This document shows, in pieces, positions 43,173-51,221 of a stretch of DNA of 64,000 bases. The position numbers were made by a program, and so were the translations under genes. Location: the NCBI GenBank assembly GCA_016719755.1, contig JADJYM010000004.1, forward strand, positions 1 through 64,000. The letters run 5' to 3'. Within the stretch, counting starts at the first letter, position 1. Each line of letters begins with the position of its first letter. The notes under the pieces are model-generated. The model was not told where the DNA came from, ran no database searches, and saw only the letters and a program-made list of their open reading frames with translations. This DNA comes from Novosphingobium sp. GTDB taxonomy: Bacteria; Pseudomonadota; Alphaproteobacteria; Sphingomonadales; Sphingomonadaceae.

Positions 43173-43192
43173 CACTGGTGGAGCCGAGGGGG
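43173..43192 (+). repeat. Distal attachment repeat of the tRNA-Ala island (attL)
   Basis: CACTGGTGGAGCCGAGGGGG is identical over 20 bp, and in the same orientation, to 51202-51221, which spans the 3' end of tRNA-Ala(CGC) including its CCA. The island between the two repeats contains the integrase next to the intact tRNA, so this is the displaced tRNA 3' end. Confidence 0.8.
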
Positions 43193-43445
43193 GACGGCAG
43201 CAGGAACACCAAAACCGCAGAAATCCTCGCCTTTCCAGCGATGCTACAGTCGCGCGTGTAGCGGACGTGTGTAACACCGTCAACCGAAGTAGGGCCACTT
43301 TTTTGGTCAATCGAACGGTTGGCGAGCCTCGCCCCAAAGCACAGGAAAACAGGAAGTTGTGATCTAGGGGTCGGGCACCCCCAGCTTTTGGGGAGGGCTG
43401 GCCACTACCTGAAGAAGTTCAGACCAACCAGTCGCTGCCGTAGGT

Positions 43446-43640
43446 CTAGCGTCCCAGCAGATGCGGATCATTGGCAAACGGAGGTTTGCCGTATTCGCGC
43501 CGGAAGGCCGCAAGCATCTCTGCTTCCACTTCCACCGGCACACGATCAGGCGTTTCCTTCCACGCGATGCGGAGTTGGTCTGGCTCTGCCAGTTGTCAGA
43601 CGGCAACCGCAGGTCGTAAACGGGTTTTCCCCGGACCGAA
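43446..43640 (-). pseudogene. C-terminal remnant of an unrecognised protein
   Basis: On the minus strand one frame reads LRIAWKETPDRVPVEVEAEM, then AAFRREYGKPPFANDPHLLGR and a TAG at 43446-43448. The sequence just upstream (GKPVYDLRLPSDNWQ) is in another frame, with a stop before it. The composition looks like real coding sequence broken by a frameshift and truncated. No family recognised. Confidence 0.35.
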
Positions 43641-43674
43641 GCAGGCTAATTTGCGGAAGCAATGGTGGCGATAA

Positions 43675-44208
43675 TCAGCCTTCTTGAGCAGCCATCGCAG
43701 CGAGATTTTGGCGCAACGTGGTCGCGTCATCGTTGTGAATGAGAAAAAGCCCATTCGGCATGGCAAACGCTTCACCGCTGTAAACTGCCCTCACATCCCG
43801 AGTAGCGAGCTTTACTCCCTCCAGAACATGCTGCTCCCCAAGCTCCTGAAGATAAATTGTCTGCAAGCCGACTTGGCCATCGAAGGGACCGTGAACAGCG
43901 GCGAAGCCTGTCGCGAGAAGATAGACGAACTCGTCTTGGCTTGGTTGTAATTGTGCAAACTCGCTTAGAACACCTTGGACCATTCCAAGGACGTAACCGC
44001 ACGAGCGCCTTCCGACGTCGTCCTCTTCCAGCGGCACCTCCCCAAATTCCATACCGAGGAGTGCAAGCTGTGGACCAAGGATGCCGGAAATCCCGACCTT
44101 AGCTGCATCGAGAAGCTCTTGACGCAATTTGTGGGATGAAGTTGGCACTCCTGCCTGAACGCCATGTTTCCGCGTCTTGCGCCGCGAGAAGAATTGCATC
44201 AGTCCCAT
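43675..44208 (-). CDS. Hypothetical island protein, 177 residues
   Basis: Starts MGLMQFFSRRKTRKHG with a basic N-terminus, then LRQELLDAAKVGISGILGPQ and LLATGFAAVHGPFDGQVGL. No signal peptide, convincing membrane helix or catalytic motif is visible. Lies inside the tRNA-Ala island, downstream of the GIY-YIG-like fragment on the same strand. I do not recognise the family; base composition is less GC-rich than the core genes either side of the island. Confidence 0.5.
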   Translation of the reverse strand: MGLMQFFSRRKTRKHGVQAGVPTSSHKLRQELLDAAKVGISGILGPQLALLGMEFGEVPLEEDDVGRRSCGYVLGMVQGVLSEFAQLQPSQDEFVYLLATGFAAVHGPFDGQVGLQTIYLQELGEQHVLEGVKLATRDVRAVYSGEAFAMPNGLFLIHNDDATTLRQNLAAMAAQEG

Positions 44209-44249
44209 TCAAGCCTCCACCAGTCGAGACGATGATAGGCCCCCAAAGT

Positions 44250-44435
44250 TCAGAAGGGGTTACCGATACTCCGAGCGCCCAGATTTTGCGGCAGGAAGGC
44301 CGCTGGAGCACGCGCAGAGTAAGTTACGACATAGACACCGCCCGTAGTCGGGATTGCGCCGCTGGCCCGAGCTTCGGCGAAAGTCAGCCAGCCGGTGAAG
44401 CCATCGGCCTCTAACGATGCCCTGTCGAACTTCAT
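44250..44435 (-). pseudogene. N-terminal fragment resembling a GIY-YIG-family protein
   Basis: 61 residues: GFTGWLTFAEARASGAIPTTGGVYVVTYSARAPAAFLPQNLGA. The order GF.GW..F, then IP...GVYVV, then P..FL matches the start of small GIY-YIG nuclease-type proteins, where the GVYVV strand is part of the catalytic GIY motif. The frame stops about 40 bp before the next gene, and the expected YIG half and catalytic Glu are missing. Probably a decayed gene. Confidence 0.4.
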
Positions 44436-48655: not shown

Positions 48656-50268
48656 CGAAGCCTCGCACCGTATCGTAGCGCGCGCAGTCCGCGATCGGCG
48701 GGTGGTTGAGCTTGAGGTCGACGATCACGTCCAGGGGGCGCTCGGATGGCGGGTCCCGGTATCGGGCCAGAATGTTGAGGATGACCTCGTCGCTGACGGC
48801 ACCGCTATCAAGCGCCTCCCGGATCGCGGCCTCGACCGCTTCCAGGCCATCGGTCATTACAGCTGCCAGCACGCGCACGAAGCGGCGGTCGGCTTCATCA
48901 CCGCTGCCCAGCTTGCGCCGCAGCCGCGTCAGTGCCGCTGGTAGGTCCCACCCCTGGAAGGGTGCGCCGTTCCGCAAGGCCCCAGGCTTGTTGGCCAGAA
49001 CGGGCAGGTAATGCCAGGGATCATAGATCGTTCGGTCGCGGCCGAAGTGCCGGGCATGTTCGGCGATGACCTCGTCGCCGAGGCGCACGACGATGCAGTC
49101 GGCATAGGCGCGGACCTGAACGGACCGCCGTGCAGCCTTAGCCATGACCGAGTAGCGGTTGCGGTCGAAGCTGATCAAGCAGGTGCCCGTCACGGCATGC
49201 GCGGTCTCGTGGAAGCCGTCAAACGGTGCCAGCATCGGCTGCAGGGCTGGTCGTTCGAGCTCCAGCGCTTCGGCAACGGTCAGCTCCTTTTGCTCGGGAT
49301 GGGCGTGCCTTACGGCCCAGCGCAGGCACTCAGCTTCCAGCCACCCGTTGAGCTCCTCGATGCTGGCAAAGCGCAGGCGGGGTTGGAAGAAGCGGCCTCG
49401 GATGGTCTGCACCTGGTGTTCAACCTGCCCCTTCTCCCACCCCGCCGCTGGCGAGCAGGCCGTGGGCTGACCATGTAATGATCAGCCATGACCAGAAAGA
49501 AGAAGCGGCCTCGGATGGTCTGCCCTGGTGTTCAACCTGCCCCTTCTCCCACCCCGCCGCTGGCGAGCAGGCCGTGGGCTCGACCATGTAATGATCAGCC
49601 ATGACCAGAAAGCGGCGGTTGAACACCCGCTCCTTGCCGATGAACACGGTGGTGACCGCGGTCTTCATGTTATCGTAGATCCCGCGCAGCGGAACGCCAC
49701 CAAAGAAGGCGAAGCCGCGGGCATGGGCGTCAAACACCATCTCCTGTGTCTCGCGTGGATAGGCTCGGACATAGACTGCCCGCGACGCGCATAGCCGCAT
49801 ATGCGCCACCTTCACCCGCATCGGCTTGCCGGCGATCTCTACGTCCTCATGGCTCCAGTCGAACTGGTAGGCCTCGCCGGGCTGGAATAGCAGCGGGATA
49901 AAGGCCGGCGCCCCATCGCCAGGATCCTTGCGCCGTGCTTCCGCCCAGCGCCGGGCGTAGCGCCGGACCGCATCGTAGGAACCCTCGAACCCCTCACGGC
50001 ACAGCAGGTCATGGATGCGCGTCATCCGCAGCCGATCGCGCCGGGGCCGGGCCTCGTTCTCCGTCAGCAGCACATCGAGCCGCTCCTGAAACGGCCCAAG
50101 CCTGGGCAGCGGTTGAACCTTGCGCCGATAATCGAACGCGCCTTCCGGCGCCCGGATCGCCTTGCGCACCACCTTGCGCGACAGCCGCAGATCCCGCGCA
50201 ATCGCCTTGATCGACTTCCCATCCGCGTGTTCACGCCGAATCCGGCAAACTGTCTCCACCACCAACAT
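48642..50268 (-). pseudogene. istA: IS21 transposase IstA, broken by an internal duplication (copy 2)
   Basis: N-terminal piece 50268-49420: an HTH (SIKAIARDLRLSRKVVRKAI) and the catalytic-core start (GEAYQFDWSHEDVEI, YDNMKTAVTTVF). C-terminal piece 49412-48642: GRFFQPRLRFASIEELNGWL to the end. A 113-bp tandem duplication (49387-49612) sits between FLVMADHYMVEPTA and TIRGRFF and shifts the frame. Without it the protein would be a normal IstA of about 500 residues. Confidence 0.9.
49387..49612 (-). repeat. Internal tandem duplication in istA, copy 2 (period 113 bp)
   Basis: AAGAAGCGGCCTCGGATGGT and all that follows to ATGACCAGAAAG occurs twice, with one-base differences. The same duplication is found in copy 1 (524-750), so it predates the split of the two copies. 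Confidence 0.85.
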
Positions 50269-50319
50269 CCCGATCTCGCCACCTGGAAAACCAGACAGCT
50301 CGCTACACCATCAGAATGA

Positions 50320-50380
50320 GGGGTCCCTTTTAGACGCCGATCACCCCGCTAACGGGGTCCCTTTTGCACGCCGGTCTACA
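50320..50380 (-). repeat. IS21 left terminal repeats, copy 2
   Basis: Minus strand: TGTAGACCGGCGTGCAAAAG, then GATCGGCGTCTAAAAGGGAC, two units of the same terminal repeat found at the right end. Confidence 0.75.
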
Positions 50381-51183
50381 GCTTTGCCAATGGTCTGCTC
50401 CATAACCCCGACAGGAATGGTCGATCTGAACCCGTCTGACGGAGGGGCAAGCTGAACAGATGATCCCAGCGTCAGGCAGTTCGCGAACAGACGATCTGTA
50501 ATCCTGTCCGAGAAATCGCCATCAAGCCGGGCAAGCTCGATCTTGTGAGCCTGCGCAATAGCTCGGCGCAGGTAGTTGTTGAGCAGATCGAGAGCCTCAC
50601 TGCCCTGCTCGGCTCGGAGGTTTGCTTTGCGTAAGACTGCAAATCTGGCACCGGCAACATCGTCGACCCCATCAGCCGGTTCTGGCCCAGTCAGGCGAGC
50701 TATCATTGTTTCAAGTTCGGCGCGCCACCCGAGGATCGCCTGCTCGTCTGTTTCAGCAGGGATTGGCGGCTGACTGTCCAACTCCCGCACTGCCTCTACG
50801 AACAAGCTCTGGGCCAATGGCGCAGCGTGCTCACTGGACAACAGTGGAAAGTCTTCGTCACTCGCCCACTTTGGCGGTGCGCTTCGGGAGTAGATGCCTG
50901 CGGGTGCTGGTGACACAGAAAATCGGCGCAACGCCTCTTTCCTCGCATCTTCGATCCGGGTCAGTGCAGTTGCATAGCTGGCTGTTTCAAGGCTGATCCA
51001 GATGTCAGCAGGCGATCCGGGCACCTTGAGGTGCTGGGGACAACGCTGCCGGAAATACCAGACAGCACTGCCCTTGCGCTTCACCAATCCTGTCGGTTTT
51101 CCCATCTCTGACATACCCGATGTGTAACACCTGTGGGTAGCAAGAGCGTTAAGAAAGGCCCCGATTTCCGGGATTTTGCGCAA
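50381..51183 (-). pseudogene. Island tyrosine integrase, N-terminal part only, cut by IS21 copy 2
   Basis: About 268 residues before the IS edge. The N-terminus (GLVKRKGSAVWYFRQRCPQHL, DIWISLETASYATALTRIED) is the DUF6538 arm-type domain of tyrosine integrases, followed by a helical core-binding region (EQAILGWRAELETMIARLTG). The catalytic R..HxxR..Y domain is missing; the frame runs ten codons into the IS. It starts about 20 bp from the 3' end of tRNA-Ala, its presumed target, so this is the integrase that inserted the island. The island can no longer excise by its own enzyme. Confidence 0.8.
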
Positions 51184-51201
51184 ATCTGCGAGATTTTAGA
51201 G

Positions 51202-51221
51202 CACTGGTGGAGCCGAGGGGG
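51202..51221 (+). repeat. tRNA-proximal attachment repeat of the island (attR)
   Basis: Identical 20 bp to 43173-43192. It covers the acceptor 3' strand and encoded CCA of tRNA-Ala(CGC), so integration left the tRNA intact. Confidence 0.8.

What the first reader, a model, noticed from the sequence alone, without database searches (positions are those of the whole stretch)
43173..51221. Eight-kilobase genomic island in the 3' end of tRNA-Ala(CGC) with exact att repeats
CACTGGTGGAGCCGAGGGGG occurs at 43173-43192 and again, in the same orientation, at 51202-51221 across the 3' end of an intact tRNA-Ala. A truncated integrase lies right beside the tRNA. The enclosed genes are not core genes (unknowns, XRE, HNH, IS) and look less GC-rich than either flank. 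Together these define both island borders to the base.
Basis: partly seen in the sequence, partly recalled or inferred. Interest (0 to 1): 0.7.

Follow-up and report, generated by a model that had tools for sequence, protein, structure and literature searches.

The report
Crippled mobile island at tRNA-Ala
A piece of foreign DNA entered the end of an alanine tRNA gene and was later crippled when a jumping gene and a deletion destroyed its integration enzyme; it is a decayed member of a known kind of mobile island, and relatives suggest it once carried DNA-cutting defence genes.

Summary
Confirmed, and of a known kind. The 20-bp repeat is exact at 43173-43192 and 51202-51221 and occurs only twice in the 3.7-Mb genome. 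Of 133 same-genus loci examined (149 genomes searched), 126 are empty sites with obgE 37-271 bp from the tRNA; four, the window included, carry this integrase family beside it; three are unresolved. Similarity to empty sites stops at the last base of the left repeat.

The window copy is a wreck. Its integrase keeps about 267 of about 645 residues; an IS21 copy without target duplication follows (47765-50380), then a headless gene remnant. Measured on the 11.3-kb relative in G002, about 5.8 kb is missing: integrase catalytic half, C5-methyltransferase, nucleases, resolvase. A control-protein-like XRE gene, an HNH-like gene and an unannotated 467-aa gene (p467) remain.

p467 homologues lie within 10 kb of a methyltransferase gene and near a serine resolvase in 7 of 7 full loci. 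In six held-out loci a resolvase was seen in 4 and an R-M gene in none. This cassette is the only possibly new part.

The parts
43173..43192 (.). att repeat, obgE side (left border)
   Evidence: exact copy of 51202-51221; similarity to empty sites ends at 43192
51202..51221 (.). att repeat, tRNA side (right border), last 17 nt of the tRNA plus 3 nt
51205..51280 (-). tRNA-Ala(CGC), intact
   Evidence: ARAGORN, Rfam RF00005 61.7 bits
50381..51183 (-). integrase fragment, about 267 N-terminal residues with DUF6538; the last 13 codons of the ORF (50341-50380) are IS sequence
   Evidence: DUF6538; intact relatives of 642 and 645 aa; alignment
47765..50380 (-). IS21-family element, TGT...ACA ends, istA split and istB shortened, no target duplication
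47620..47764 (-). remnant of the 66-aa gene, first ~18 codons missing at the IS
   Evidence: residues 19 onward of the G002 66-aa protein align; tblastn 46% to the G456 66-aa protein
47186..47635 (-). HNH-like protein, 149 aa
   Evidence: phrog_2340 endonuclease E 9.5e-5; 75% identical to G002 and 70% to G456 homologues
45717..47120 (-). p467, unannotated 467-aa protein
   Evidence: no match in Pfam, PHROGs, PADLOC, NCBIfam; homologues
45274..45534 (+). XRE regulator resembling R-M control proteins
   Evidence: HTH_3; PDLC03665 Control_protein E 5.1e-23; 77% identical to that of G002
44447..45280 (-). 277-aa ORF of unknown function
   Evidence: phrog_29597 E 7.4e-16, function unknown
43675..44208 (-). 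177-aa ORF of unknown function
   Evidence: no match
41900..42952 (-). obgE, left flanking core gene
51390..52100 (-). lipoprotein-like gene, right flanking gene
   Evidence: tblastn match beside the tRNA in most surveyed loci

Best explanation
A decayed integrative element. Its ancestor entered the 3' end of tRNA-Ala(CGC) by means of a DUF6538-type tyrosine integrase, duplicating 20 bp and leaving the tRNA whole (borders and empty sites shown; the act of integration inferred). It most likely carried an R-M system with a control protein, a serine resolvase and a cassette of small genes (inferred from G002 and other relatives). An IS21 element landed in it, and a deletion starting at the IS, or recombination between two IS copies, removed about 5.8 kb as counted on G002 (two truncated genes and the missing target duplication are shown; the content of the lost DNA is inferred). 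What remains cannot excise by its own integrase and is probably drifting.
For: Repeat and tRNA; 126 empty of 133 examined loci; base-exact border; intact 642- and 645-aa integrases beside the same tRNA in G099 and G002; both IS flanks are broken genes; 7-9 bp target duplications at 4 of 7 IS copies measured but not at this one; G002 element with C5-methyltransferase, nucleases, resolvase, 66-aa, HNH-like and XRE genes in matching order; G036 remnant with an HsdR piece at the same site; low GC.
Against: No sister strain with the undeleted island was seen. Two other IS copies (L059, L065) also lack a target duplication, so its absence is weak evidence by itself. G002 has no p467 match, so the lost stretch need not equal that of G002. 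Held-out p467 loci showed no R-M gene in 6 of 6. The BsaWI-like match in G002 is below the Pfam cut-off.
Confidence: 0.82

Rival explanations
1. The island is still mobile: an integrase elsewhere in the cell acts on its intact 20-bp att sites in trans.
For: Both repeats are exact and the tRNA is intact.
Against: No second integrase similar to the window one was found in the genome (one match in G000, the island's own). Excision was not testable here.
Confidence: 0.08
2. The ancestor never carried an R-M system; the deletion removed other cargo and the XRE gene is an ordinary element regulator.
For: p467 loci outside the first set showed no R-M gene by tblastn, 6 of 6; small XRE regulators are common on mobile elements (recalled).
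Against: The XRE gene matches R-M control-protein models best in PADLOC and is 77% identical to that of the R-M-bearing G002 element at the same site; G036 has an HsdR piece at the same site; 7 of 7 first-set p467 loci have an R-M methyltransferase within 10 kb.
Confidence: 0.2
3. The segment is ancestral and was lost in the relatives.
For: None found beyond the fact that presence and absence alone are symmetric.
Against: 126 of 133 examined loci are empty and only 4 carry this integrase family, with differing contents; the segment is bounded by a duplicated tRNA end and differs in GC.
Confidence: 0.02
4. The HNH-like protein and p467 form a small defence system that is the surviving useful cargo.
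For: Both have open frames in the window and occur together in R-M-bearing loci G003, G251, G446 and G456 and in held-out G688 and G661.
Against: G254, G444 and G556 have p467 after the resolvase with no HNH-like gene found by tblastn, and G002 has the HNH-like gene without p467; the link to the resolvase fits element upkeep better. No PADLOC match for either protein.
Confidence: 0.12

Closest known systems
tRNA-integrated genomic islands with tyrosine integrases (general class)
   Same: Duplicated tRNA 3' end, integrase beside the tRNA, empty sites in relatives, low GC
   Different: Integrase truncated, so not self-mobile
G002 element (L043, C249:4845-16117), same tRNA
   Same: Integrase 56%, HNH-like 75%, XRE 77% identical; 66-aa gene; same site with a 20-bp repeat of the tRNA end
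   Different: 11.3 kb, full integrase, C5-methyltransferase, nucleases and resolvase present; no p467; other genes at the far end
Sphingorhabdus soli D-2Q-5-6 locus (L172, and L068 = G251)
   Same: Resolvase, HNH-like gene, p467 44% identical, tyrosine integrase, type I R-M genes nearby
   Different: Beside tRNA-Gly(CCC) with another integrase type; no att repeat found in the fetched stretch
Mobile R-M systems and their decay to solitary parts (PMC4176335; passages seen)
   Same: R-M genes carried by mobile elements and degraded after transfer
   Different: Here the methyltransferase and nuclease would be gone and a regulator left

Membership tests
tRNA-integrated genomic island | direct repeat of the tRNA 3' end at the far border | tested here: met
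tRNA-integrated genomic island | empty site in relatives | tested here: met
   126 of 133 examined loci
tRNA-integrated genomic island | integrase next to the tRNA | tested here: met
   present as an N-terminal fragment only
self-mobile integrative element | integrase with catalytic domain | tested here: not met
   no Phage_integrase match in the window ORF; about 267 of about 645 residues
ICE / IME | relaxase or conjugation genes | tested here: not met
   none among the island ORFs scanned; p467 has no assigned function, so a new type is not excluded
prophage | phage structural genes | tested here: not met
   none among 7 island ORFs scanned against PHROGs
R-M island | methyltransferase and restriction enzyme | tested here: not met
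   absent in the window island; a C5-methyltransferase is present in the G002 relative
R-M island | control protein | tested here: met
   by similarity to PDLC03665 (E 5.1e-23); function not tested
IS21 family (47765-50380) | IstA and IstB | tested here: met
   NF033546 over its cut-off and IstB_IS21; istA is split
IS21 family (47765-50380) | target-site duplication | tested here: not met
   absent here; 7-9 bp at 4 of 7 copies measured, this one included

The most novel reading that the evidence does not exclude
The resolvase / 66-aa / HNH-like / p467 cassette marks a not yet described family of tRNA-targeting integrative elements in Alphaproteobacteria that changes integrases and tRNA sites and ferries R-M (and perhaps other) cargo, with p467 a new protein family needed, together with the resolvase, for upkeep or replication of the excised circle.
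Probability: 0.4. Interest if true: 0.55.

Novelty: new member of a known kind. Interest (0 to 1): 0.3.

Why it matters
It gives a base-exact border, an occupancy rate (4 loci with this integrase family against 126 empty among 133 examined) and a worked case of an integrative element fixed and stripped at an IS. The by-product, a protein family without annotation that travels near a serine resolvase in R-M-bearing loci at several tRNA genes, is a testable lead on how such elements persist.

Tried and rejected
Chance repeat: rejected. Prophage: no structural gene among the scanned ORFs. p467 function: a profile against PDB sequences gave nothing at E up to 10; its 8 aligned members gave only single weak matches in Pfam and PHROGs at E up to 10; the AlphaFold model from 2 sequences was poor (mean pLDDT 38.6), so no fold search was made. 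p467 relatives sought in plasmids, phages and viral contigs: none; genome contigs gave none and one, and the pattern method there finds close relatives only. The G002 integrase gave only relatives under 60% identity in plasmids (16 records) and phages (2 records) and none in viral contigs. A weak p467 match in G074 (E 4.7e-4) was not counted. Of 149 genomes, 16 were left out of the occupancy survey: 3 without a match and 13 with weak matches. Of the 133, L013 and L167 end at a contig edge and L114 (G121) has other genes (P450- and dioxygenase-like, judged by eye) where obgE would be; these three stay unresolved.

Literature searches (listings only; passages: PMC12629846, PMC4176335) used general terms; the IS21 search gave nothing useful.
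Full report
What is there. The 20-bp repeat is exact at both places and has no other match in the window even with 3 mismatches; the whole 3.7-Mb genome holds just these two exact copies. The right copy covers the last 17 nt of tRNA-Ala(CGC), 51205-51280 minus, plus 3 nt. Island DNA without the IS has GC 58.2% against 66.9% and 67.1% in the flanks; none of 61 flank blocks of equal size falls below 64.8%.

Empty sites. A 231-bp query around the tRNA matched 146 of 149 same-genus genomes. I examined 133 loci: 29 returned, 100 fetched, and the 4 with the integrase. In 126 the obgE start lies 37-271 bp (median 168) from the tRNA 3' end; in the window the matching point of the left repeat (43176) lies 224 bp from the obgE start (42952), which fits. 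Occupied: G000 (window), G002, G036 and G099, with sequence similar to the window integrase beside the tRNA; the G099 contig ends inside the element. Unresolved: L013 and L167 (contig edge) and L114 (other genes). With the flanks joined in a script, 41 of 133 loci align across the junction in a single piece; the spacer is too diverged in the rest for that test. Running the left flank into the island instead, 19 of the 20 furthest-reaching alignments stop at the last base of the repeat; the other one is G036, itself occupied, which shares about 94 bp of island end.

The integrase and the deletion. The window integrase ORF (280 aa) has DUF6538 but no catalytic-domain match. Beside the same tRNA, G099 and G002 have 642- and 645-aa integrases, 64% and 56% identical to it; the G002 one has a Phage_integrase match just under the Pfam cut-off (26.7 against 27.1 bits) and a PHROG integrase match (E 2.6e-20). 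The window copy ends at the IS after about 267 residues; the last 13 residues of the ORF are IS sequence. On the other side of the IS the frame continues as residues 19 onward of the 66-aa protein that stands before the HNH-like gene in G002. In G002 coordinates the missing stretch is about 5.7-11.5 kb of L043, 5.8 kb, holding the integrase catalytic half, a C5-methyltransferase, a BsaWI-like ORF (E 6e-4, below cut-off), an HNH nuclease and a serine resolvase. The IS has TGT/ACA ends and matches IS21. Target duplications flank 4 of 7 copies measured in the genome (8, 8, 9 and 7 bp) but not the window copy, L059 or L065. A deletion at the IS is the best reading, with recombination between two IS copies an equal mechanism; the missing duplication alone would be weak evidence, the two truncated genes are the stronger.

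Relatives of the contents. The XRE protein resembles R-M control proteins (PDLC03665, E 5.1e-23) and is 77% identical to that of the G002 element and 76% to that of the EcoRII-bearing G456 locus. p467 has no match in Pfam, PHROGs, PADLOC or NCBIfam, and its family profile none in PDB sequences. Homologues are rare: 4 of 148 relatives (one weak and not counted), 7 of 397 family genomes, and by profile 11 of 396 order and 3 of 385 class genomes; these sets overlap and each count includes the window genome. In 7 of 7 full loci of the first set (G003, G251, G254, G444, G446, G456, G556) a C5- or HsdM-type methyltransferase gene lies within 10 kb of p467 (positions), although those genomes hold only 1 to 6 such genes each in 2.6-5.0 Mb (my rough estimate is at most about 4% chance per locus). 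A serine resolvase is near in all 7 (Pfam for G254; similarity for the others). Repeats of the local tRNA bound elements at tRNA-Gly(CCC) in G456 (40 bp, on the tRNA 5' side), tRNA-Ser(GCT) in G254 (18 bp) and tRNA-Ser(CGA) in G444 (17 bp); none was found for G251 or G556.

Held-out check, results against included. Six homologues not used in the profile (G688, G661, G602, G398, G1022, G842; G398 and G842 weak) were fetched. A resolvase is present in G688, G661 and G1022 by tblastn and in G602 as judged by eye from its ORF; none was seen in G398 and G842. HNH-like matches occur in G688, G661 and G602. Matches to the G002 integrase lie in G688, G602, G398 and G1022, the last three near tRNA-Phe, tRNA-Ser and tRNA-Met. 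No R-M gene was found in 6 of 6, using only the R-M proteins of the first set as queries. So the resolvase link holds better than the R-M link.

A second wreck. G036 has a 2.0-kb island at the same tRNA, bounded by the same repeat, whose long ORF (566 aa) joins an integrase N-terminus, a piece 83% identical to an HsdR and a p467 C-terminus. The draft is 87% complete in about 260 contigs, so misassembly is not excluded, but obgE and the lipoprotein-like gene flank it on one contig. It supports that elements at this site carried R-M genes and shrink by deletion.

Literature. Listings (titles and starts of abstracts) and passages of PMC4176335 and PMC12629846 show that R-M genes on mobile elements, defence cargo in islands and decay to solitary parts are known. 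The term DUF6538 is in no paper of the library. I saw no description of the resolvase/HNH/p467 cassette, but no search was aimed at it by name since it has none.

Identity of the host. No call named the genus. One p467 homologue is from Sphingorhabdus soli D-2Q-5-6, on a contig of the same length (339,566) as G251:C3, which is listed as same family as the window; that this is Sphingomonadaceae is recalled.

Verdict. The finding is right and of a known kind; interest is modest. The cassette is the part worth following.

Noticed in passing
window 2001-15000: GC is 55.6-60.4% per kb against about 67% elsewhere, next to another IS21 copy at the contig start (C4:1-2361): possibly a second island.
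   Followed up: no
window 49386-49612; L059, L060, L061: A tandem duplication of about 113 bp inside istA is shared by three other full-length IS copies of the genome, while other copies lack it, so an altered IS seems to have been copied further.
   Followed up: partly
L045 8980-10961 (G036): A 2.0-kb island whose 566-aa ORF joins pieces of integrase, HsdR and p467 in one frame.
   Followed up: partly
G000:C3:24241-25297: A C5-methyltransferase match split over two open frames (288 and 107 aa) elsewhere in the window's genome: possibly another decayed R-M gene.
   Followed up: no
L114 (G121): Same tRNA and lipoprotein-like gene, but P450- and dioxygenase-like ORFs (judged by eye) instead of obgE within 3 kb: a rearrangement or another insertion.
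   Followed up: no
L066 13075-13914 and L068 13910-14728: RES-domain proteins, 65% identical, near the p467 cassette at tRNA-Gly in G456 and G251: a possible toxin of a toxin-antitoxin pair.
   Followed up: no
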